From Candidatus Omnitrophota bacterium (GTDB lineage Bacteria > Omnitrophota > Gorgyraeia > Zapsychrales > JAHFFX01), in assembly GCA_023247705.1 (NCBI GenBank), contig JAHFFY010000023.1, forward strand, positions 1-32,237: a DNA stretch of 32,237 bases, written 5' to 3'. Numbering within the stretch: the stretch's first letter is position 1; the number at the start of each line of letters is the position of its first letter. The notes under the pieces are model-generated. The model did not search any database. It was given only the letters and a program-made list of their open reading frames with translations, and had not been told where the DNA came from. Positions 2,203 to 28,939 of the stretch are shown here, in pieces. A program made the position numbers and the translations under genes.

Positions 2203-3276
2203 TTATATCCATTTCCGTGCCTTAAAAAAAGAATACATCGCAAGCGCGCACAGCAACATAATCCCCAGGATAATAAAATACCCCCAATGGGTCTCCAATT
2301 CAGGCATATATTTAAAATTCATCCCATAAATCCCCGCAATAAAAGTCAAAGGGATAAAGATCGTTGAGATAATCGTCAAGAATTTCATAACTTCATTCAT
2401 CCGGTTGCTGATCACCGACATATAGACATCCAACATCCCGGAAAGCATATCGCGAAAAGTTTCCACGGTATCGATGACCTGAATGGAATGGTCATAGGCG
2501 TCTCTTAAAAAAATATTGGTGGGTTTACGGATCAATTGGGATTCGGTCCGCAATAAGCCGCTAATGACTTCCCGCAGCGGCCAAATGGCTTTATGTAAAA
2601 ACAACATGTCTCTTTTTAAAGCGTGAATCTTGCGGAACGTCGCAATGTCGGCGTCCGCCATCAATTCGGTCTCGATCAAATCAATCTCTTCGGCCAGACT
2701 TTCCAGGGCCAGAAAATAGTTATCGACAATCGTATCAATCAGGGCATAGGCGAGGTAATCCGCCCCCATTTTTCTGATCCGGCCTTTGTCATTGCGGATC
2801 CGGTCGCGGATGGGGTTGAAAATATCTCCACCAGATGATTCCTGAAACGAAATCACATAGTTCTGCCCTACAATTAAACTGACATGCTCGGATCGAATAT
2901 CCTGCGATTGATCATCGCTGTAAAGCATCTTGACCACGATAAAAAGATAATCCTCATAATCATCCAACTTTGGTCTTTGTTCGGTATTGACAATATCTTC
3001 CAAGACCAACGGATGAATTTCAAAATGGGAATCAATCTGTTCAATAATCTGGGTGTCTTCGAGGCCATCGATGTTAATCCAGGTGACGGATGGTTTGTCT
3101 TTAAACGGATAACACTCTTCCACGGTTTTCAATTCCTTTTCCTGATATTTTTTCTCGTCATAATCGAACAGTGTTATTCGGACCTTATCCGTTTTCTGCT
3201 GGCCGACGAAAACGACCTCCCCCGGAGGCAAGCCGACCGTTGCGGAACGTTTTTTGATGGATTTCTTCATCTGCAC
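2203..3276 (-). CDS. corA: CorA-type magnesium/cobalt transporter
   Basis: 357 aa; C-terminal 'FIAGIYGMNFKYMPELETHWGYFIILGIMLL' with the GMN motif and two TM helices; CorA-like cytoplasmic N-domain. Confidence 0.95.
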   Translation of the reverse strand: MQMKKSIKKRSATVGLPPGEVVFVGQQKTDKVRITLFDYDEKKYQEKELKTVEECYPFKDKPSVTWINIDGLEDTQIIEQIDSHFEIHPLVLEDIVNTEQRPKLDDYEDYLFIVVKMLYSDDQSQDIRSEHVSLIVGQNYVISFQESSGGDIFNPIRDRIRNDKGRIRKMGADYLAYALIDTIVDNYFLALESLAEEIDLIETELMADADIATFRKIHALKRDMLFLHKAIWPLREVISGLLRTESQLIRKPTNIFLRDAYDHSIQVIDTVETFRDMLSGMLDVYMSVISNRMNEVMKFLTIISTIFIPLTFIAGIYGMNFKYMPELETHWGYFIILGIMLLCALAMYSFFKARKWI

Positions 3277-3292
3277 CCCTTGAGGGATTAAC

Positions 3293-3379
3293 TATTCTCC
3301 TTCGCAAAAGTAATAGGAACAGCAGTGTTTGCTGCTAAGCAACACTGGAAAGTTCTATTGCTTTTGCGAAGCAGAATAA
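3293..3379. repeat. Dispersed palindromic intergenic element, copy A
   Basis: Imperfect inverted repeat TATTCTCCTTCGCAAAAGTAATAGGAACAGCAGTGTT...AACACTGGAAAGTTCTATTGCTTTTGCGAAGCAGAATA; the same sequence recurs inverted at 7832-7953. Confidence 0.8.
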
Positions 3380-8904: not shown

Positions 8905-9435
8905 TTAATCGGAAACACTTTGCGTTGCGTGTTCGGAATTCGACGGGATATTTTCGTTTTGAATCGCCTCGGGAGTTGAGACTGAAGAAATTAAATAAGT
9001 TTTTAGTTTTTCCCAGGTTTTAGGCCCCACTTTGCCATCAATTTTTAAATTATTTTTGGTCTGAAAATCTTCGATCGCCTTTTTAGTTTTCGGTCCTAAT
9101 GCGCCGTCAATCTTCCCTTGATATAAATTAGCGCTTTTCAATGCTTGCTGAATGTCCTGGATCGAAGGTTTATCTATAATATTCAGTGCAGCAGCCGGTT
9201 CCTGATCTGTCATCGCCATTTGCGTATCTGGCAAAGCTGTCGTGGGGGCTTCCGTACTTTGTGTAATCTCGGTCGGGGATTCAGTGTTTTGTTGCGGGGT
9301 GGCATTGTCAATCTCTTTAAAAAACTCCGTTGATTCTGACAAATGTTGCTGCGGTTCAGACTTTTTCTCACAGGCACTTAATCCGAACAAAAGGATCACG
9401 ATGATAAAACTCAATTTCTTCATTTGGAAGTTCAT
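8905..9435 (-). CDS. Lipoprotein with C-terminal peptidoglycan-binding domain (PG_binding_1)
   Basis: Lipobox 'LFGLSAC'; 'IQQALKSANLYQGKIDGALGPKTKKAIEDFQTKNNLKIDGKVGPKTWEKLKTYL'. Confidence 0.9.
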   Translation of the reverse strand: MNFQMKKLSFIIVILLFGLSACEKKSEPQQHLSESTEFFKEIDNATPQQNTESPTEITQSTEAPTTALPDTQMAMTDQEPAAALNIIDKPSIQDIQQALKSANLYQGKIDGALGPKTKKAIEDFQTKNNLKIDGKVGPKTWEKLKTYLISSVSTPEAIQNENIPSNSEHATQSVSD

Positions 9436-11039: not shown

Positions 11040-11660
11040 TCAAAAATAACCTTTCAATCGTTCCCAGGTGCGAGAGCCCAGAATTCCATCTGCTTTGAGA
11101 GATTCCGATATCTGGAATTGAGTAATCGCCGCGATTGTTTTCTTGCCTAGCTTACCATCAATGGGCCCCGGGTCAAAGCCGGCGTTCTTTAAAGCGTTTT
11201 GTATTTTTACAGTTTGGTTTGTGTATTTTGATTTGTTTCTTCTCGTGTTCAACGAATTCTTTTTTGATTTGACCTCTATTTTTTTGTAGATTAATTTTCG
11301 TTCAATGCCCTCATCCAGTCTGGTCAATATCGACGGATTATCATCTGATTTGGATAAACGGTTTAATTCAATCAAAGTTCTAGCATCGATAAAACCGGAG
11401 GGTTCCACATGATATAAATTCTGAAATCGTGTAATCGCTTTCCTGCTTTCCGGCATCAACCTTCCATTGATGACCCCGGGATCGAAACCTTTTTCTTGCA
11501 AAAGAAGCTGGACTTCCAAAATACGAGGATTTTCTTGATTTGTAAAACCCAACAAATCCCTCTCTTCTTTCTCTTTTGGATTCTGCGCTTTTCCAAATAT
11601 CTTGCATCCAAGCAAAGCGAAACACATCAAAATCAAAAAAAATTTTCCAATTAACTGCAT
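11040..11660 (-). CDS. Lipoprotein with two PG_binding_1 domains
   Basis: Lipobox 'CFALLGC'; two repeats: 'VQLLLQEKGFDPGVINGRLMPESRKAITRFQNLYHVEPSGFIDARTLIEL' and 'IQNALKNAGFDPGPIDGKLGKKTIAAITQFQISESLKADGILGSRTWERLKGYF'. Confidence 0.9.
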   Translation of the reverse strand: MQLIGKFFLILMCFALLGCKIFGKAQNPKEKEERDLLGFTNQENPRILEVQLLLQEKGFDPGVINGRLMPESRKAITRFQNLYHVEPSGFIDARTLIELNRLSKSDDNPSILTRLDEGIERKLIYKKIEVKSKKNSLNTRRNKSKYTNQTVKIQNALKNAGFDPGPIDGKLGKKTIAAITQFQISESLKADGILGSRTWERLKGYF

Positions 11661-12746: not shown

Positions 12747-15700
12747 TTAATTTGTGAGCAGGCTGACCTGTTTGGGCGATGCTTGGGGAGAATCTATCCC
12801 GAGTTGAAAAGGAAGATTGGCAGCGGGAGTAATATCGATGATGACCGGGATGAAACCGTTGATCGGCGTATTTTCAAAATTTTTGATATCGAACGGAACC
12901 TGCGGAAGGATTTGCACGCCTTTGCCCTGTTTTTGAATCTGGGTGTCCAAATTGGCGGTGTTTAAGTCGATACCTCCGACCTTCTTAAGCAAAGCCTTAT
13001 CACCAGCAGCGGCATTGGGAGTATAGCTCTGCGCCCAGGCGTTCAGCTCCACTCTCCTCGCGGGCGCGAGAGGCAATTCCCAGCGATGGGTCTGGAAATA
13101 CTTCACAATCGCTGCGACTCTCTGAGGATAAAGCTCAGTAATATTTACACCCAGATGATTAGCCATTCTTTCCAGTTGATCAATTTTGGGAAGATCATAG
13201 TCTAAAACAATCCTGTCTTCTTTAGTCCAGATATCTACATAATCTGAGTTCAACCTTAATTCTTCCGCAAATTTTGCAACTTTTGCATTCATGTCTGGAA
13301 GATTTGCATATTTTTTATCAATCAGATCTCTTAATCTATTCGCAAATTCCGGAACCCCTCCTGAAATTCGATCGGCCCGCACTTGTCCACGGGGAGATGT
13401 CCGTCTCTGGAATCGAGTCGATATTCTTTTGAAATCTAAAAACGCTTGAATATGTTTTCTATAATCCGGTAATAACGTTTCCGGGGCGAGTTTGAGAAAC
13501 GCACTCAATTTTAAAAACTGCTGTTCAGATTCGACGAAGTATTTCCCCACGATCAACGCGTTAACAAAATAAAGTGACTTCCGTAATTCAGTTGCTATCT
13601 GCACCGGGGTAATGCCTTGTGCTTGTATGTTCGCTCTTAAACGCTCGCCTAATTGAGATCTCGCTTGCTGCCAAGTGATGCCTTCGGTAGGCGAGGGGAT
13701 GGTTTCCGGGATAGTCTCAACCGATACAAAATCCCGCGTGGGCAATCCCATCGTAGGCAACACAAGGAATTGAGCAAAAAATTGTTCACCATCAAAGCCT
13801 AAAATCTCACCCAGCGCCACATAAAATTCTTTTTTACCAAATTCATCATTTGCAGTAAACTCACTTCGTTCCAACTCCTCTATAGTCGCAACTAAAATGA
13901 CTCGTCCTAGTTTCTGATTTAACGCGCTGGCAAGCTGCTCTCGACTGATTCCTAATTTTTCCCTTACGTTTTGTACAAAAGAAACTCCTTCTTGTTGTTG
14001 CGCCGCGGTAACGGTCTGTTTTAAAAAAACATCCGTTTTTTGTTCCTCATATCCCATCTCGGGCAGGATCCCTCTTAAAATCAAATTGCGAATTTTATTC
14101 CATTCTGCTTTTCCAGTTAAATCAATTTTATCTTCGCCAATCCGATCAACCGCTGTTCTCCCTTCCTCGACTTCTCTTGAGAATCTGCCACCCAGAATTT
14201 TCGCTCCTTCCAGTAAATCTTCAACCAAATCATCGGCTAAATAAATAATACGATATAATAACGGCCTTAACTTACCTGGATTCCATCTATCTTGCTCAGT
14301 TAATAAAAATATAGCGCTAATAATTTTTATATTTTGGTCTCGATCCTGATTAAATGCCTGTTCTTTAATATCCTTCACTAACTGTTGCAATAAATCTTGA
14401 AGCGTATCAACTGAAATTTTATCTTTAAATAAACCTTTTAGGTCTTGAAGAGTTTGATCATTGGTTTTTAGCCAATCTCTCAATTCATCCGCGGACATTT
14501 CTGAAACATCTTTGGTGGCTGGCTGTGGCGCTTGAGGGGCGGCTGTCGAAGGTTTTGCAGACAATTGGGCAATCAAAACGATAAAATCATCGGCATCGAC
14601 GAAAAGGGCTTCGGCCCATTTTCTCCGTCGATTATCCCCGGATGGGAACCTTTCCCCACGCTCGTATTTTTCAATTTGTTTGATGGGAAAAGTTCCGGTC
14701 AATCCCATGTCCGCGGCCAATTCTTCTTTGGATTGTTTTTGCGATTTGCTACCCCGGAGAGCTTCCCGCCGCTTACCCATCCAAACACCAACATCTTGCA
14801 AAGAAGTAAAATTCTTTGCCTCTGTTTGTTCGGATAATTTAATAACAGTATTGGGCAACTCTGTCGTCGGCTTTTCTTGTCCTTGCAATTGCCTCAAGGC
14901 GGCTTCGGTGGCAGAAAGTTTTTCTTCGACTGATTTTTTGCTCAATCTTAGTCTCGCTAATTGCTGGGTTTGATCAACAGTAATCGCAGCCTGAATTTCT
15001 TGATCTCTTGTTGTCCTGAGTTCCTGTAATCTGGTCACGGCCGACTGAATGGCCTCATTCTTAGTTGATTTATTCTTCGCGATGTCGGCCTTCGTGTTCT
15101 CCAGGGTTTCATTCTGAACGTCCATACGGCTCTGGCGGAAACGCGTTTCAGCGGAGATATTTTCTTTCTCTGTGGCAAGACGTTGGGCGATATCGGCAGC
15201 CAGTGCGTCCCGTCGTTGTTCCAGCTTGACAATCTGTTGAGCGGATTTCGTCTCGAAGTCCGCAAAATCTTGTCTTAGATCAACCAACTCCCTTTCAATC
15301 TCTTGCTCTTGGGAAGCGAAGCTGCTGTTGATTCCTTCCTGTTTGACGGATATCGCGGTTTCGACTCCTTCGAGGGAATGACTTATTTTTTTATTAAGAT
15401 TCACTAATCTTGCGATGCGCAGATAAAGCAAAGCCGTCTGTGCGATGGGATTGCCATCAATCAATTTTTCTAACGGCACGCCTTTCCCCGGATACTGGGG
15501 CTGCAATTCGATTCTTTTCGACTTAATTTGTTCATTCAAAATATTCCTTGCCGCAGGGAGCACCTCTTCCAAAAGTTTACTGATCCCCTGGAGCCATTGG
15601 TCTTGAGCGGTCTGATTGAGTAAGGTTCGCGCCTCGGTGAGTTTCGCTTGCAGATCGTTAAAAAATTCGTCTGTGCTTTTCAGCATGGCTTTATCGCCTC

Positions 15701-18700
15701 TAACTCCCAGTTCATTTCGAAAAGGCGCAGTTCTTTCGTTATTCAAAATAAGGCTAAAATTCGTGGCGATGTCATGTGTACTGGCACGATTTCTTTGCAT
15801 CGCACTCTTTTGCGATTCCAATAGATTTCGGATCACCGCTAATGACTTTCCGGCAATATCCTCCGGAGTTAATCCAAAATCCGCTAACGCTTGAGTAAAT
15901 CGGCCTCTCAGGATCGTCTGCATCACGTCTTCGCCTTTTGCAGTAACTTGATCGCCTCCCCCTTTTTTAACAAAAGCATCATAACCGCGAAACATTTGAG
16001 TAAAAATCGCTCCCAGAGACCCATTTATTTTCAGGTAATATACAATCGCAATCGGCAACTGACGTTCATCCCCCTCAAATAAACCCTCGCCATTGATCCC
16101 GGCGGCGTTACGAATAGCGTTTAGGTCCTTGGAGGCAAGAAATTTTCTAAACAGCCCTCTTGGGTTAGCCATCCACGCGCGTAAATCTCTCCGGAAATCT
16201 CTTCGAGCACCTCCGATGACGATCTTTGTTGCAGCTTTTTTCTGCCCTAATTCTAAAATGGCATTGATTTCATCTTTAAATTGATCCAGAAGCTCATTAT
16301 CTTTATCATGTTGTTGTTTCAAATATTCTCTATAACCCATTTTCCGGACGGTTTGATATTCCGGTTGTTGCAATTTTCCCCGCAGACGCAGTCCAGCCGA
16401 CTCAATCTCACGCAAACGTTGATCGATCTCATCTTTATTTATAGATTCTTCCTGCAATGTTTCTCTGATCATTTCCAAGTCTGAATCTCGGTTAGCTTCT
16501 GTGCTACTCGCAAACATCTCCACCAAAATTTTGAATTTAAATCGTGTATCTCTTTGGAGCGCTTCCATAATAATTTCTTGCGTTTCCGGAATCTCTGCCG
16601 GACCCAGTTCCGGATGCCGCTCTTCCAAATATTCTTTGATCAGTCCTCGGATCGAATTAATATCTGCAAATTCCTCTTCACTTAAACTATCCAAAATATT
16701 TTCCACAACGAGATTGATTTGCTCTTCTTCTAATTTAGGTTTCTCGCTCAGAGGGGCTTTTCTAGCCTGTACGATCCCCGGGATAAGATCCATAATTTTA
16801 TCCAGGATCGGTTTTTCAGACAAAAATCTTCCTTGTTTTAAAAGTTCAGTACCTATATTTTCTAATGCAGCGACAAAGTCGGCCTCCTTAAGTTCTTCCA
16901 CCTCTGTCACAAGATCGCTCAAGGTTGCGGCAATGGAACGAATATCTTCGTTTGAAGGGTTTACGATTACCGATTCCTTATAAATCATCTCAACGATCTG
17001 ATGAATATCATAACCTTGAATCTTATCAGCATAATCCGCCTGCAATGTCTCCAGAATAGCGCCTTTGATCAAATCGACATCTTCAGCTTGCTGTTTCATT
17101 TCAATAATATTATCAATGAGAGGCATAAAATCTTCCGGGCCTAAGTCCAAAGCAGGCGTCGTGGTTTTTAATTCTTGAATCTTTGTTACAACCAGGGGAA
17201 CAAGAGAATCAATCATTGTATCATCCCCTCTTAATCCAGGGGCTAACGATCGGATGGTGTTCGCAATCACTGCGCTCATACCACCATTTTGAGCAACGAA
17301 CTCATCGCCTAAAGCAATAACCGCCCTAGCGACGGCTTCCGTATCAATTTCTGATCTGGTTAGCTCTTGGAGTTTACTCCAGAAAAGATCCTCGTTCACT
17401 TTCAAGGATTTAGCCCAGGCTTTCATTTTTGTCTCGTTGCTATACACCACAGGATAGGTATTGTTTTCATATGCAATCGTTGTTGTGCGGTCCATTCCGG
17501 TTATTTCGCCAAGAGCGGTATTGCTCATGCCCTGAGATCTGAATTCGCCTCGACGATCTTTCATATAGGCTCTCAGTTGATCAAGGGTCGTTATCTCTTG
17601 AGAAAAAACGGTGATCTCGGGCATCTGGTCATAAATCGCTCTTTCCCTTGCACGCTTGTCAGCAGGCGCAGTGGCAGGTGGTGTTGGAGATGGGGCTTGG
17701 CCTTCTAATGTTCTAACCTCCTGAACCCTCTGCCAAAACCAATCCGCATCCAGACCAAGATCCGCAGCGAAATCTTTGATTTGTTGTTCACTTAAGGTAC
17801 GCAATTGCGGCGCGATTTGAATTATAATAAAATCCCCTTCGGAAAGGCCCAATGCGCTCATCATGTCTTGAATAGATAAAATATTGGCGCGACTCAAAAT
17901 ATTGGATAATAATACGACCGCAAAACCGATCCCCTCTTCCATATCATTGCTTCCAATAGATTGAATAACCTGTTGTAAACTTAAAAGCTGATCATAGGAG
18001 AATTGATTCATGTTTACTTCAGGCATTCGGGAAGAAAGATTTTCTCGTAGCGTATTGATCCTCGCTAACATTGCGACCGTTTGAGAACCGACAATCGCAT
18101 CGATCCTTCCCAAAAACCAATCAGGATTTAAACCTAGCTTCTGGGCCCAAATTTCCATCCGGATCACTTTTTCTTCGTCAAACGTTTTTAAATTTTCTCC
18201 ACGTTCATAATCGGTAAAACTTCTGCGGACAATCCCCATCGTCTCGGCAATCTCTCCTGACCCAACACCCAAGAAATCCTTTAATTCCCTCATCACCTGA
18301 CCCAAAACGGTTATATCCGTCGCGCTCTCTAACTGCTTGACCAAATCTCTGATCTTATCCTGTTGCCCTGTCGAAAAGTTTCTCCATAACTCAGCATTGG
18401 AAAATTTCGTTCCGATATCATCGGTGGGAATTCCAGAGATAATCGCTTGAACCCTCCCCCAAAACCATTCAGGATTCAGTTCGAGAAACGCCGCCCATTT
18501 CTTCACCTTTTCAATTTTCTGGTCATCAAACTTTTCCATGTTGCGTCCATTTTCCCAGAAATTTAATAGTTGTGTTGACATTGAAACCGCGGCAGCCACA
18601 TCGGCATTTCTTTTCGGACCTAAACCTAATTCGCGATTCGTATTCAAAAACCCTTTCAGGTCTTGCATTGCCTTCCCTAATACTTGCATATTCGTTGCCT

Positions 18701-21700
18701 GTTCAATGCGGTCAATCAGGGCCGCCAACTGGGATTGTTGTTCGGCCGAAAGCGAAGCAGTCTGCAGAGCCGCGGATATCTTTTCTGTGCCCAGCGATGG
18801 TCCAGGCGGCGTTGGAGTGGTCGGTTGTTCTTCTTCGACAACGATCGGTTGCGTCCCAATGATCTCTTGAATTCTTTGCCAGAATAATTCCGGGTTCAAA
18901 TGCAGGACTCTCGCCCAGCTTTTCATCTGTGCTTCCAGAGGATTTTGCAGACCTTTGCCTTCTTCGTATTGGTTTTCTAAAATATCCGGAGTGATCCCCA
19001 TGGCAACGGCTAATGTCTGCAATACGTCTTCCACCACATTGGTCGAATCCAGCAGCCCACGCAGATCCCGCATGGCGTCTCCGACTGTCGCCAGATCTAC
19101 GGCATCGGTCAGTTGTTCCAAAATTCCGGCCTGGGCATTGCGTTCGGCAAAGGCGAGGGCGGGGAATTGCAAACCAGGGGCCCAGCGCAACCGGTTTAAT
19201 TCCCGTTGAGCGTAAAAAAGATGCCGCTCGACTTCATTTTTTCCTTTTTGTAAACGCGCAACACTTTCTTGCTCTCCTGCCAAGGCCGCGGTTACCTCCT
19301 CTTCCCTGGCCGCTTCCAATCTTTGCAATTCTTCCCGTCGGCGTTGCTCTAATGCATGCTGTCGTTGTATCCTTTGCCTTTCAAAATCTTCTCTAAATTG
19401 TTGGTTGGTCTGTTCCCGGGTTCTTAATCTGTTGCGTAATTGAGCCTGATTGAGCGGATCGGTTGCCTGGGCCAGCTGTTGTTCAAGAGTTGCTCTGGTC
19501 TGTTCCTGTGTCCTGATTCTTCCTTCATTTTCATCGACCCATTTATCAAATTCCTGCTGCAGGGACGCTAAGGTTTCTTGAATTCTTGATTCCACCGTTG
19601 CCTCAAATTGTTGGGTCAGTGTCGCTCTTTTGGCTTCCAAGACGGCGGTTTGTTTTTTCAATTCCTCATTAATCAATAATAAACGGTTAAGCAGTCTGGC
19701 GACTTGCAGATAAGTCCACACCCGCGCGACCGCCGTATTCTCCGCCATGAGATCTTTAATCGTCAGTTTCTTTTGAGTTAGCTTTTTGGTGGTTTGAGCT
19801 TGTTGAATCCGAATCTGTTCGTCCAGATCTCTTTGTTTTGCTTGCCAATAAGGGGTTGCTAATTCTTTCGCATATTCTTTCAACAATTGACGGGCCTCTT
19901 TGATCGCTGACAAAACCTGAGTCTGACCATTGACGAGATCGTTTTGGCTCAATAAAAATCGACCTGCGACCAAGGAGCGATAAAGATTTTCTTCTTCCGG
20001 GGTAAACACCGCCGAAACAGCGGATGGTTTGGGAAGAAAAATAACAGGGGGGGCGACCTCAGGAGTTCCCTCGGGGAGCGCAGTCGCACCGCTCTCGGCT
20101 TTGGCTAAAAGCCCACGCAGAGATTGTTGGCCCATACCGAATTTTTCTAACCATGCAAGATAACTGGCACGGGCTTCTTGATTTTTTCTTTGGTTCTCCT
20201 GGGCTGTTTTCGTGGGAACATTTGTAACCGGACGTTGAAATAATCGATTGGGCAATCCTTTATCAATTAACTCTCTCAGCAATTCAATCGTGACAGGATG
20301 GCTGAGATAGCGTGTTGTTAAAATCTTGAACACTTGTTCGATGAATGTCATCAACCTGATGTCCAAACCATTCTGCTTCAAAAGCGCATCACTCAATGCC
20401 TTGACGACTTCATCCCGCTGATATTTATCCAAATTCACCAAAAGGCTGACATAAAATCGGAAAAGATTGTTTTCAATGTCAATGCTATAGCCGCCCCAGT
20501 TCGCATTAATGAGGGTCTTGTTATTCACCCGATATGCCCCGATCTTAATGTCTATCCTCGGCATATCGGCAGGCCCGCCGTTGACATTCATGGATGATCT
20601 GGATCGAACAAATTGGATAAAATCCTCCGCAAACTTTCGACCGTATCTTTCAGGCAAAGCGTTAATAAACGTTGCCAATTGATCCTGATATTTTGCCGTA
20701 AACCACCTTAACCGTTTATCGATCTGTCCATGAGATCTCGCCAATTCCATTTCCCACAGAAAACTTAACACAGTTTCGCTGACTTGTTCCGGAGTAATCG
20801 TACCGGTTTTGACCCCGGCATCTAAAACGCTCAATGAGCTTTCAAACCAGGCACGAACCGAAGCCATCCTTAGTAAATATCTTTCCGCGTAATTAAGATC
20901 GGCCAGCCCAAAAATATTATAAATTGCTGGTTGAGCAAAAATATGATCTCTTAAAGTCAATTCTCCTTGGGTTTCATCAAATAGGTCAGCGGGAACAGAT
21001 CGCAACTGGGCTATGATCTGTTGATAAAGAATATCAAATAGTTTCTCTTTTCTCTTATCTTGGGCAACCGCCTTTAATGCCGTATCGACCTCTTTCCATT
21101 GCAGCCCGCGGATAAAAAGCTGATCGATTGTCTGTTCCGGCCAGCCTCTGTCAACAGCATCTATGATGTTGTCTAAAAAGTCCTCATCAATATCAACGCG
21201 CTTGGTCAAAAGCCCCGCGGTTTCATTCAACTCCAAAATTTTCTGCAATGTAAGGGATTCCGAGATACTCAAATCACGCGGACCGCCCGGAAGAACCACC
21301 TGGGTCGCGCCAAAGGCATTGGCCAACTGCCGGCGTAAAACGGGTTCCTCGGCTTTAGTTTTCGCTTGAAGATTATTCAAAATTTCTTTTCTGGAAATGT
21401 GTTGAAAATCCAACAGCGCAGAAACCGTCTCAGCCAAAGTTCCATCAAAAGTTAGAAGGGCAACGTCCCCTCGAGGGGTAATGAATTCAATGTCGTCTGC
21501 TGCTGTCGATTGACCCGCCTCACCAGCTGCGGGAGTGACACCTAAAACGCCCATGCCGATCCCTAACGAACCGCCTCCTTTTTGCTGAGGATCGGTCAAT
21601 GCTTCGACATTGAGGACTTCCGCTCGCCCGATTTCTCTGGCTAAAGCCAATTTTTCTTCTCGGGTATCGGCAATTTCAGGATTAACCTCTTCGCCAATGT

Positions 21701-22796
21701 CAACAAAATCAGCCCCGCCCGAAAAATATTTTCGGGGAACATTATTTTTACTGTAAGGATCGATATCTTCCTTGATATAGCTGTAAACCCCCGCTTTAAA
21801 CGCCTCAAGATATTGCTCATAAATTTTTTCGCGGATTTTTTTGTCATTCACATCCACGCCATCAATTTTCTTTTGATCCACATAAACTTTGTAGAGGAAA
21901 CTTTCCTTTAATCTTTTTTTATACCAAGCCGCCAAGATCAGGGCATTATAAACCTGACGGAGTTGAGCGAAATTTTTGCCTTCATTGACTTCTTTTTCTA
22001 TCGCAGGGATGAGAACCTCTTTGGCCACGTTCGAAGATACATTACTAATATGTTCCACATCCTCTTTTTGAAGTTGATCTGTCCCGAATTCCGCGGCCTT
22101 GGCGTTCTTATTGATCGCCAAATAATCTTCTTCCATCATAACTTTAAGATGGCTGTTCATGATATAAACCGTATTCTGTTCTTCACTCTCATAAAGGAAA
22201 GCTTTATCCGGGACAATCCAAACCTTATTAAATGTGTTCATAGGAATATTCGTTGTCCCATAAAGCTCATAAGCCTTTTGATAAACCATGTCCCAAAATC
22301 TCTTGCCTAATCCTGTTTCAGGATAAGTTAAGGAAGCCATGAGTTGTTTCAGGACATAATCCTGGCCTAACAGGTCCCTTCCCATCTGGGTAATGCCTAA
22401 TTCATCGGAAGAAATTCGCTCTTTCTCGTAGGGAGACAGGTTGACCCACAGGTCTTTTTCGGGAATAGTCAAACCGGCCAGAAAATATTTGATTAATGTT
22501 TCGGATTCCGTTTTTGCCTGTGCTTTATTGCTCTGTAAAATTGTTTGGTCACCCGTGTCGACAATAAAATTAAAATAAAACGGGTTTTCGGGATGGATGG
22601 TGATCCCTTTTAACATCGCGGGAGTAAAAACAGGGGTCGTTGAAACAATCACGCCAGGTTTGGGGAGTCCAGGAACGTTTTGGGCAAAACTTAAGGATGG
22701 CGGAATAACGGAATTTATAAGAAATGAAAAAAGGATAATTGGATTGATTACCCGGAGGGAATTACGAGATTGAGTTCGCCTAAGAAGATGTGTCAT
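12747..22796 (-). CDS. Giant (3349 aa) predicted exported multi-domain protein: N-terminal module, two coiled-coil blocks, about nine Cro/CI-like helical modules, C-terminal 'VGGIDLN' module
   Basis: Single uninterrupted 10,050-nt ORF; N-terminal signal-like 'RRTQSRNSLRVINPIILFSFLINSVIPPSLSFAQ'; internal repeats visible in the translation; terminator downstream. Confidence 0.93.
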   Translation of the reverse strand: MTHLLRRTQSRNSLRVINPIILFSFLINSVIPPSLSFAQNVPGLPKPGVIVSTTPVFTPAMLKGITIHPENPFYFNFIVDTGDQTILQSNKAQAKTESETLIKYFLAGLTIPEKDLWVNLSPYEKERISSDELGITQMGRDLLGQDYVLKQLMASLTYPETGLGKRFWDMVYQKAYELYGTTNIPMNTFNKVWIVPDKAFLYESEEQNTVYIMNSHLKVMMEEDYLAINKNAKAAEFGTDQLQKEDVEHISNVSSNVAKEVLIPAIEKEVNEGKNFAQLRQVYNALILAAWYKKRLKESFLYKVYVDQKKIDGVDVNDKKIREKIYEQYLEAFKAGVYSYIKEDIDPYSKNNVPRKYFSGGADFVDIGEEVNPEIADTREEKLALAREIGRAEVLNVEALTDPQQKGGGSLGIGMGVLGVTPAAGEAGQSTAADDIEFITPRGDVALLTFDGTLAETVSALLDFQHISRKEILNNLQAKTKAEEPVLRRQLANAFGATQVVLPGGPRDLSISESLTLQKILELNETAGLLTKRVDIDEDFLDNIIDAVDRGWPEQTIDQLFIRGLQWKEVDTALKAVAQDKRKEKLFDILYQQIIAQLRSVPADLFDETQGELTLRDHIFAQPAIYNIFGLADLNYAERYLLRMASVRAWFESSLSVLDAGVKTGTITPEQVSETVLSFLWEMELARSHGQIDKRLRWFTAKYQDQLATFINALPERYGRKFAEDFIQFVRSRSSMNVNGGPADMPRIDIKIGAYRVNNKTLINANWGGYSIDIENNLFRFYVSLLVNLDKYQRDEVVKALSDALLKQNGLDIRLMTFIEQVFKILTTRYLSHPVTIELLRELIDKGLPNRLFQRPVTNVPTKTAQENQRKNQEARASYLAWLEKFGMGQQSLRGLLAKAESGATALPEGTPEVAPPVIFLPKPSAVSAVFTPEEENLYRSLVAGRFLLSQNDLVNGQTQVLSAIKEARQLLKEYAKELATPYWQAKQRDLDEQIRIQQAQTTKKLTQKKLTIKDLMAENTAVARVWTYLQVARLLNRLLLINEELKKQTAVLEAKRATLTQQFEATVESRIQETLASLQQEFDKWVDENEGRIRTQEQTRATLEQQLAQATDPLNQAQLRNRLRTREQTNQQFREDFERQRIQRQHALEQRRREELQRLEAAREEEVTAALAGEQESVARLQKGKNEVERHLFYAQRELNRLRWAPGLQFPALAFAERNAQAGILEQLTDAVDLATVGDAMRDLRGLLDSTNVVEDVLQTLAVAMGITPDILENQYEEGKGLQNPLEAQMKSWARVLHLNPELFWQRIQEIIGTQPIVVEEEQPTTPTPPGPSLGTEKISAALQTASLSAEQQSQLAALIDRIEQATNMQVLGKAMQDLKGFLNTNRELGLGPKRNADVAAAVSMSTQLLNFWENGRNMEKFDDQKIEKVKKWAAFLELNPEWFWGRVQAIISGIPTDDIGTKFSNAELWRNFSTGQQDKIRDLVKQLESATDITVLGQVMRELKDFLGVGSGEIAETMGIVRRSFTDYERGENLKTFDEEKVIRMEIWAQKLGLNPDWFLGRIDAIVGSQTVAMLARINTLRENLSSRMPEVNMNQFSYDQLLSLQQVIQSIGSNDMEEGIGFAVVLLSNILSRANILSIQDMMSALGLSEGDFIIIQIAPQLRTLSEQQIKDFAADLGLDADWFWQRVQEVRTLEGQAPSPTPPATAPADKRARERAIYDQMPEITVFSQEITTLDQLRAYMKDRRGEFRSQGMSNTALGEITGMDRTTTIAYENNTYPVVYSNETKMKAWAKSLKVNEDLFWSKLQELTRSEIDTEAVARAVIALGDEFVAQNGGMSAVIANTIRSLAPGLRGDDTMIDSLVPLVVTKIQELKTTTPALDLGPEDFMPLIDNIIEMKQQAEDVDLIKGAILETLQADYADKIQGYDIHQIVEMIYKESVIVNPSNEDIRSIAATLSDLVTEVEELKEADFVAALENIGTELLKQGRFLSEKPILDKIMDLIPGIVQARKAPLSEKPKLEEEQINLVVENILDSLSEEEFADINSIRGLIKEYLEERHPELGPAEIPETQEIIMEALQRDTRFKFKILVEMFASSTEANRDSDLEMIRETLQEESINKDEIDQRLREIESAGLRLRGKLQQPEYQTVRKMGYREYLKQQHDKDNELLDQFKDEINAILELGQKKAATKIVIGGARRDFRRDLRAWMANPRGLFRKFLASKDLNAIRNAAGINGEGLFEGDERQLPIAIVYYLKINGSLGAIFTQMFRGYDAFVKKGGGDQVTAKGEDVMQTILRGRFTQALADFGLTPEDIAGKSLAVIRNLLESQKSAMQRNRASTHDIATNFSLILNNERTAPFRNELGVRGDKAMLKSTDEFFNDLQAKLTEARTLLNQTAQDQWLQGISKLLEEVLPAARNILNEQIKSKRIELQPQYPGKGVPLEKLIDGNPIAQTALLYLRIARLVNLNKKISHSLEGVETAISVKQEGINSSFASQEQEIERELVDLRQDFADFETKSAQQIVKLEQRRDALAADIAQRLATEKENISAETRFRQSRMDVQNETLENTKADIAKNKSTKNEAIQSAVTRLQELRTTRDQEIQAAITVDQTQQLARLRLSKKSVEEKLSATEAALRQLQGQEKPTTELPNTVIKLSEQTEAKNFTSLQDVGVWMGKRREALRGSKSQKQSKEELAADMGLTGTFPIKQIEKYERGERFPSGDNRRRKWAEALFVDADDFIVLIAQLSAKPSTAAPQAPQPATKDVSEMSADELRDWLKTNDQTLQDLKGLFKDKISVDTLQDLLQQLVKDIKEQAFNQDRDQNIKIISAIFLLTEQDRWNPGKLRPLLYRIIYLADDLVEDLLEGAKILGGRFSREVEEGRTAVDRIGEDKIDLTGKAEWNKIRNLILRGILPEMGYEEQKTDVFLKQTVTAAQQQEGVSFVQNVREKLGISREQLASALNQKLGRVILVATIEELERSEFTANDEFGKKEFYVALGEILGFDGEQFFAQFLVLPTMGLPTRDFVSVETIPETIPSPTEGITWQQARSQLGERLRANIQAQGITPVQIATELRKSLYFVNALIVGKYFVESEQQFLKLSAFLKLAPETLLPDYRKHIQAFLDFKRISTRFQRRTSPRGQVRADRISGGVPEFANRLRDLIDKKYANLPDMNAKVAKFAEELRLNSDYVDIWTKEDRIVLDYDLPKIDQLERMANHLGVNITELYPQRVAAIVKYFQTHRWELPLAPARRVELNAWAQSYTPNAAAGDKALLKKVGGIDLNTANLDTQIQKQGKGVQILPQVPFDIKNFENTPINGFIPVIIDITPAANLPFQLGIDSPQASPKQVSLLTN

Positions 22797-28483: not shown

Positions 28484-28939
28484 TTATTCTAAATATGTTT
28501 TTAATTCATCCCAGGTTTTGCGTCCGACAACACCATCGGCGGTCAGATTACGGGATTTTTGGAAATCGGCAATGGCGCGTTTGGTCTTCTGCCCGATCTT
28601 ACCGTCCACCGGGCCATTGTAATAGCCCGCTTTTTTCAGGGCTAATTGCACCTGATCGACGCTTGCGTCTATTCTGATAATACTATCGTTTTTGAGACCA
28701 AGATCCTTATCAGAATATTTCGGCAGCTTTCGATACGCCGGTTCTTTACTGGATTCTTGCGACAAGGTCTGGATTTCGTTTTTCAGATCACTGATTTCTT
28801 CTTCTTTTTGTGACAACTGCTCCTCTAATTGACTAATTCGCATTTGCGTCTGGTCTGCGGACATATCGGCCCGGCGAGTTGTTGCGCAACCAATCAGAGT
28901 AAAAGCTAAAACCAGGTAAAAAAATAATCTTCCCACCAC
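28484..28939 (-). CDS. Lipoprotein with coiled coil and C-terminal PG_binding_1 domain
   Basis: Lipobox 'FTLIGC'; coiled coil 'QMRISQLEEQLSQKEEEISDLKNEIQTL'; 'VQLALKKAGYYNGPVDGKIGQKTKRAIADFQKSRNLTADGVVGRKTWDELKTYL'. Confidence 0.92.
   Translation of the reverse strand: MVGRLFFYLVLAFTLIGCATTRRADMSADQTQMRISQLEEQLSQKEEEISDLKNEIQTLSQESSKEPAYRKLPKYSDKDLGLKNDSIIRIDASVDQVQLALKKAGYYNGPVDGKIGQKTKRAIADFQKSRNLTADGVVGRKTWDELKTYLE

What the first reader, a model, noticed from the sequence alone, without database searches (positions are those of the whole stretch)
13090..19125. Giant exported protein carrying about nine degenerate Cro/CI (XRE)-like modules
Seen in the translation: a recurring unit of roughly 80-130 aa with a Cro/CI-like helical pattern that often ends in a 'WAxxLxLNPxWFWxRxQxI'-type tail. 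Examples: 'VLGQVMRELKDFLGVGSGEIAETMGIVRRSFTDYERGENLKTFDEEKVIRMEIWAQKLGLNPDWFLGRIDAIVG' (about 18071-18340); 'ADVAAAVSMSTQLLNFWENGRNMEKFDDQKIEKVKKWAAFLELNPEWFWGRVQAIIS' (about 18421-18715); 'TLAVAMGITPDILENQYEEGKGLQNPLEAQMKSWARVLHLNPELFWQRIQEIIG' (about 18842-19125); 'ADLGLDADWFWQRVQEV' (about 17700-17960); 'NTALGEITGMDRTTTIAYENNTYPVVYSNETKMKAWAKSLKVNEDLFWSKLQEL' (about 17350-17627); 'SKEELAADMGLTGTFPIKQIEKYERGERFPSGDNRRRKWAEALFVDADDFIVLIAQL' (about 14560-14830); more divergent copies at about 13750-13995, 13450-13665 and 13090-13360. Cro/CI HTHs are normally cytoplasmic DNA-binding domains in small regulators. A tandem array inside a signal-peptide-bearing 3349-aa protein is unexpected. It may be the HTH scaffold reused as an extracellular structural or binding repeat, DNA binding outside the cytoplasm, or delivery into a partner cell. 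This is the best candidate for an undescribed system here.
Basis: partly seen in the sequence, partly recalled or inferred. Interest (0 to 1): 0.88.

Follow-up and report, generated by a model that had tools for sequence, protein, structure and literature searches.

The report
Exported giant protein with Cro-fold modules
A 3,349-residue exported bacterial protein really does contain at least five copies of a fold normally used inside cells to bind DNA, and it belongs to an apparently unnamed family of nearly cysteine-free exported proteins in the phylum Omnitrophota that put one conserved start and one conserved end around many kinds of normally intracellular parts, central-metabolism enzymes included.

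Summary
The 3,349-aa ORF (12747-22796, minus) carries five self-similar Cro/CI (XRE) modules (m1, m2, m3, m5, m6), one remnant (m4), two weak candidates (m7, m8) and one unsupported (m9). Pfam HTH_19/HTH_3 pass their cut-offs, and a modelled module (pLDDT 90) matches Cro/CI-type structures in the PDB. The bigger result is the vehicle. The protein is one of 11 complete paralogues in this 2.4-Mb Omnitrophota genome. All have a signal peptide, a ~330-aa N-domain with no Pfam or PDB relative, variable cargo, and a ~75-aa C-domain. The N-domain occurs in 138 of 386 Omnitrophota genomes. Cargo elsewhere includes PGI, enolase, TIM, PGK, GAPDH, aldolase, isocitrate lyase, malate synthase, DnaJ and response regulators. 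These proteins are almost free of cysteine (this one: 0 in 3,349 residues), and some surviving cysteines are catalytic (GAPDH, isocitrate lyase). This supports real work outside the cytoplasm. The modules have lost positive charge and their recognition helices are the least conserved part, so I favour a docking/scaffold role over DNA binding. The cargo of this protein is unique among 386 genomes. Function and final location are inferred, not shown.

The parts
12747..22796 (-). P0001, 3349-aa exported giant protein (whole ORF)
   Evidence: 0 cysteines
22683..22796 (-). signal peptide, residues 1-38, hydrophobic stretch from residue 17, invariant A38-Q39
   Evidence: no dedicated signal-peptide predictor was available
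21690..22682 (-). conserved N-domain, residues 39-369, found only in Omnitrophota among the matches listed; no Pfam or NCBIfam match; no PDB fold match
21453..21467 (-). boundary motif DVALL (residues 444-448) after the N-domain
18882..19910 (-). first coiled-coil + XRE cassette (residues 963-1305), duplicated at 14583-15647
   Evidence: blastp 24% over 361 columns, E 6e-9
18849..19118 (-). XRE module m1 (1227-1316)
   Evidence: homology to m2/m3; no Pfam hit alone
18432..18713 (-). XRE module m2 (1362-1455)
   Evidence: HTH_3
18081..18338 (-). XRE module m3 (1487-1572), modelled fold
   Evidence: HTH_19; AF2 and Foldseek
17715..17870 (-). remnant module m4 (1643-1694), mostly the helix 4-5 tail
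   Evidence: 20.8 bits self-HMM, not in the seed
17352..17597 (-). XRE module m5 (1734-1815)
   Evidence: HTH_19 E 0.001
15681..15695 (-). boundary motif DKAML (2368-2372) between cargo units 1 and 2
14583..15647 (-). second coiled-coil + XRE cassette (2384-2738)
14553..14816 (-). XRE module m6 (2661-2748)
   Evidence: weak HTH_19
13752..13985 (-). possible HTH m7 (2938-3015)
   Evidence: Pou 0.0016, HTH_25 0.04: marginal
13413..13667 (-). possible HTH m8 (3044-3128)
   Evidence: HTH_19 E 0.1: marginal
12987..13001 (-). boundary motif DKALL (3266-3270) before the C-domain
12750..12986 (-). conserved C-domain (3271-3349), 'GGIDLN...INGFIPVIIDITP..NLPF.LG'

Best explanation
P0001 is one member of a family of exported Omnitrophota proteins built on a common chassis: a Sec-type signal peptide, an N-domain with no known relative, interchangeable cargo of normally intracellular domains set off by D-x-A-[M/L] motifs, and a C-domain. 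The cargo of P0001 is a duplicated coiled-coil + Cro/CI-fold cassette plus extra Cro/CI modules. Shown by sequence: the fold, the chassis, the paralogues, the near-absence of cysteine. Inferred: the signal peptide is used, the protein works outside the cytoplasm, the two end domains direct or anchor it there, and the Cro-fold modules serve as protein-docking or structural repeats rather than as specific DNA readers. Confidence is about 0.95 for fold and chassis membership, 0.85 for a place outside the cytoplasm, 0.5 for the docking/scaffold role; the figure given is for the whole statement.
For: Fold. Chassis: N-domain 53-59% identical in 10 other complete own paralogues of 1256-4553 aa; at least 582 genome stretches, the 80 returned being Omnitrophota MAGs except two loci of one record titled only 'bacterium'; 138 of 386 phylum genomes; 61 ORFs with both ends. 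Motif: D[KRT]A[LM]L 20 times in 11 own proteins, 0.28 expected; in other Omnitrophota D.A[ML] within 60 aa after N in 32/61 (2.2 expected) and within 100 aa before C in 21/61 (3.4 expected). Outside the cytoplasm: signal-peptide-like segment in 91 of 93; Cys 0.03% in the 11 own proteins against 0.84% in ORFs without a hydrophobic segment from the same contigs; in other Omnitrophota 0.12% against 1.23%; residual cysteines include GAPDH ASCTTN (twice) and the GCKKCGH segment of isocitrate lyase. Not a DNA reader: charge difference, Mann-Whitney p=0.002, n=5 vs 27; recognition region least conserved.
Against: No localisation, proteomic or binding data. Low charge may simply follow the acidity of the whole protein (pI 5.3), and the five modules are paralogues, not independent samples. 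m5 and m6 are near neutral or basic (+1, +2). No partner protein is known, and no gene next to P0001 looks like a dedicated secretion partner. The C-domain could be a retention rather than a sorting signal. Exported proteins in this window are themselves somewhat low in cysteine (0.52%).
Confidence: 0.5

Rival explanations
1. Exported DNA-binding array: the modules bind extracellular DNA, or DNA of a partner or prey cell after delivery (a bacterial nucleomodulin-like effector).
For: Cro/CI fold intact, several modules in one chain; Omnitrophota are proposed symbionts or predators (PMC10066038); another giant ORF of this genome has basic XRE modules (+4).
Against: Five modules average about -1 net charge against +3.8; recognition region least conserved; no nuclear or delivery signal tested; cargo unique to this genome.
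Confidence: 0.2
2. Neutral domain accretion: the ends are the functional part and the cargo is recruited, diverging filler (spacer, shell or coat) whose original activity is irrelevant.
For: P0001 cargo has no relative in 385 other genomes; the exported PGK of P0005 has changes at active-site motifs (SHLGRP to SHLENP, GGGD to GGGN); m4 is a remnant.
Against: Catalytic cysteines are kept in GAPDH and isocitrate lyase cargo while most others are gone; a PGI cargo scores E 1e-189; the HTH fold is kept over much divergence.
Confidence: 0.2
3. The protein stays in the cytoplasm or at the inner-membrane face: the N-terminal hydrophobic segment is an anchor and the HTH modules act on the chromosome.
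For: No localisation data; Cro/CI domains are normally cytoplasmic.
Against: 0 Cys in 3311 mature residues (chance 7e-13 at the 0.84% of neighbours, 2e-6 at 0.4%); invariant Ala-Gln after the hydrophobic segment in all 11.
Confidence: 0.08

Closest known systems
Cro/CI (XRE) helix-turn-helix domains (Pfam HTH_3, HTH_19; structures C.AhdI 1y7y, ClgR 3f51, HipB, 434 Cro)
   Same: Fold, helix order, whole-protein Pfam scores over cut-off
   Different: Tandem in an exported, cysteine-free protein; extra conserved W-A-L-NP-F-W tail; low charge; diverged recognition helix
Omnitrophota giant ORFs (Ca. Velamenicoccus 39,678 aa; PMC10066038)
   Same: Same phylum, very long ORFs, few annotated domains
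   Different: Here a defined N- and C-domain; members as short as about 620 aa; no transmembrane array in P0001 and no adhesin domain
Gigantic Omnitrophota proteins with Lipocone, enzyme, kinase, peptidase, LysM domains (PMC12419801)
   Same: Mixed intracellular-type domains in giants; a predation role is proposed
   Different: The passages read do not describe the N/C-domains, the motif, the lack of cysteine or HTH arrays; no Lipocone test was made here
Polymorphic toxin systems (from own knowledge)
   Same: Constant trafficking end and interchangeable cargo
   Different: Cargo is internal, not C-terminal; no toxin domain found in P0001; cargo is metabolic or regulatory
RodZ, HTH_25 (from own knowledge)
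   Same: A Cro-fold HTH used for protein binding rather than DNA
   Different: RodZ HTH is cytoplasmic and single

Membership tests
Cro/CI (XRE) HTH superfamily | Profile match over curated cut-off | tested here: met
   HTH_19 46.5/30.2, HTH_3 33.1/23 for the whole protein; single modules are below cut-off on their own
Cro/CI (XRE) HTH superfamily | Five-helix Cro-like fold | tested here: met
   m3 model pLDDT 89.9; 49 of the 50 listed PDB matches are Cro/CI/XRE-type HTH
Cro/CI (XRE) HTH superfamily | Positive charge usual for DNA binding | tested here: not met
   -6, 0, -3, +1, +2 against mean +3.8, n=27; net charge only, not surface charge
Cro/CI (XRE) HTH superfamily | Binds operator DNA | not testable with these tools
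   needs EMSA
Omnitrophota N/C-bracketed exported proteins (defined here) | Conserved N-domain after a signal peptide | tested here: met
Omnitrophota N/C-bracketed exported proteins (defined here) | Conserved C-domain at the end | tested here: met
   P0001 3271-3347, 89 bits; P0001 is in the model
Omnitrophota N/C-bracketed exported proteins (defined here) | Boundary motif and lack of cysteine | tested here: met
Velamenicoccus-type giant surface proteins | ORF over 20 kb with many transmembrane helices | tested here: not met
   10 kb; strongest 15-residue hydrophobic stretch beyond residue 80 has mean Kyte-Doolittle 1.68
Polymorphic toxins | C-terminal toxin domain with immunity gene | tested here: not met
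   no toxin family over cut-off in P0001, which ends in the C-domain; neighbours read by eye only

The most novel reading that the evidence does not exclude
Omnitrophota run a general 'second cytosol': a dedicated chassis exports cysteine-free, still active copies of intracellular enzymes (glycolysis, glyoxylate cycle, chaperones, signalling) and regulatory folds, perhaps cut into units at D-x-A-[M/L] sites, to act in an extracytoplasmic compartment or a partner cell; P0001 is its scaffold or regulatory component built from Cro-fold repeats.
Probability: 0.3. Interest if true: 0.95.

Novelty: new variant of a known kind. Interest (0 to 1): 0.8.

Why it matters
Giant Omnitrophota proteins are called unexplained in the papers read (PMC10066038, PMC12057145). 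A shared N- and C-domain, a boundary motif and a cysteine signature turn many of them into a recognisable family that can be counted, localised and tested, and they show a DNA-binding fold and central-metabolism enzymes in proteins that carry the marks of export. If the enzymes are active outside, it changes the view of where metabolism can take place in these very small bacteria.

Tried and rejected
Whole-chassis alignment A3 (N rows plus C rows) put the C rows onto the N-domain and was not used. N-domain fold search gave no match better than probability 0.12, so no function could be read from fold. Search for the array and for the whole cargo in 386 phylum genomes found no relative except one marginal 35% stretch. 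PADLOC: none. The Pfam SicP-binding and NCBIfam SptP hits at 665-737 are below cut-off on helical sequence and were rejected. 'Nine modules' rejected for m9; m7 and m8 left open. Paper searches for this family by keyword gave nothing beyond the giant-ORF papers; bioRxiv and most subscription papers are not held, so an earlier description cannot be ruled out.
Full report
WHAT IS THERE. The ORF 12747-22796(-) codes for 3349 aa. Pfam gives HTH_19 (46.5 bits, cut-off 30.2) and HTH_3 (33.1, cut-off 23). A profile built from five modules finds those five and one degenerate copy it had not seen (1643-1694), and nothing like them in ten paralogues or twenty shuffled copies. Single-module queries support m1, m2, m3 as mutual homologues; Pfam supports m2, m3, m5 singly and m6 weakly; m7 and m8 are marginal and m9 is not supported. 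A profile search of PDB sequences lists C.BclI, 434 and P22 repressors, HipB and others, at modest E-values (best 2e-4, a designed DNA-binding protein). The model of m3 from the five window modules has pLDDT 89.9 and the helix order of a Cro domain; of the 50 structures listed, 49 are Cro/CI/XRE-type HTH proteins and one is an unnamed chain of a ribosome complex; Foldseek E-values are modest (0.02-0.2), as expected for 90 residues, with probability 0.99-1.00.

ANATOMY. Residues 963-1305 and 2384-2738 align over 361 columns (24%, E 6e-9): a coiled-coil + XRE cassette was duplicated. D-x-A-[M/L]-L motifs lie at 444, 2368 and 3266, i.e. after the N-domain, between the two cargo units and before the C-domain.

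THE FAMILY. The first ~370 residues recur in 13 or so places of the same genome, ten others being complete ORFs of 1256-4553 aa that all end with the same C-domain. Short or interrupted N-domain copies also occur (C71, C49, C37). Of 386 phylum genomes 138 have it. 61 of the ORFs at the named loci carry both ends. The window genome itself is unnamed; Omnitrophota is inferred from this. I found no Pfam or NCBIfam entry for the N-domain and no PDB fold match for a fair model (pLDDT 80.9, pTM 0.82).

CARGO. Own genome: PGK and histidine-phosphatase (P0005), RmlD and ROK (P0009), M48 peptidase and ABC1 kinase (P0006), cNMP-binding (P0008), ThiS (P0003). Elsewhere: 49 cargo stretches give response regulators, HEAT, GH116, PPDK, DnaJ, HATPase, PGI (1e-189), enolase, TIM, hexokinase, FBPase, PGM, GDH, radical SAM; L058 PGK + enolase, L056 two GAPDH + acyl-CoA dehydrogenase; L106 class-I aldolase + malate synthase + isocitrate lyase; L165 response regulator, NUDIX, methyltransferase and an HTH_3 over cut-off. 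L165 is thus a second bracketed protein with an XRE domain, in another family of the order (its N-domain is cut by the contig end). The own genome keeps a normal 415-aa PGK besides the exported, diverged one.

EXPORT. Signal-peptide-like segments are in 91 of 93. Cysteine: 9 in 28,654 residues of the 11 own proteins (0 in P0001) against 0.84% in ORFs without a hydrophobic segment from the same contigs; 0.12% against 1.23% at the named loci. In the mature parts of the 61 ORFs 65 cysteines remain (0.07%); they include both GAPDH ASCTTN sites, a radical-SAM CxxxCxxC, several CxxC pairs and GCKKCGH in the isocitrate lyase protein. I read this as selection against free thiols outside the cytoplasm, with retention where catalysis or metal binding needs them; that is inference.

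FUNCTION. Net charge of five modules is -6, 0, -3, +1, +2; 27 XRE domains of small ORFs in relatives have mean +3.8, none below 0. Recognition-region identity among modules is 19%, helix 1 29%, helix 4-5 tail 36%. This speaks for reuse of the fold as a docking or structural repeat; it is not proof. XRE arrays also occur in other giant ORFs: own C63 (14,647 aa, 0 Cys), G387:C62, G388:C147; these lack the N-domain in what could be read.

KNOWN. Papers read: giant ORFs with unknown roles (PMC10066038); giant proteins mixing enzymes, kinases and LysM with a proposed predatory role (PMC12419801); a large exported protein in a related clade (PMC12057145). None of the passages read describes the bracketed family.

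LIMITS. Export, processing and activity are untested; cysteine backgrounds are samples; the charge comparison is small; the literature held is partial.

Noticed in passing
G000 contig C63:22102-66045 (L124-L126): A 14,647-aa open frame without a single cysteine, open at the contig end, with several XRE HTH domains, GFO/IDH/MocA oxidoreductase, TPR, abhydrolase and CAAX-protease-like stretches, beside mutS/mutL; G388 has a giant ORF in the same setting.
   Followed up: partly
L106:9989-19081 (+): Chassis protein with class-I aldolase, malate synthase and isocitrate lyase; its only two mature cysteines lie in GCKKCGH of the lyase.
   Followed up: partly
L056:6816-15143 (+): Chassis protein with two GAPDH copies (both keep ASCTTN) and an acyl-CoA dehydrogenase.
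   Followed up: partly
L087:9884-14599 (+): Enolase cargo with the C-terminal barrel matched before the N-terminal domain, as if permuted.
   Followed up: no
L020:255-7457 (P0005): Exported PGK diverged at active-site motifs beside an intact 415-aa PGK elsewhere in the genome (C40).
   Followed up: partly
L022 (C27:81933-96693): Two giant chassis genes in tandem, 31 bases apart.
   Followed up: no
G000 C71:688-1686, C49:77763-78800, C37:115-576: Short or stop-interrupted N-domain copies, perhaps decayed or N-domain-only members.
   Followed up: no
window 8905-9435, 11040-11660, 28484-28939: Three small exported proteins that by eye end in peptidoglycan-binding-type repeats.
   Followed up: no
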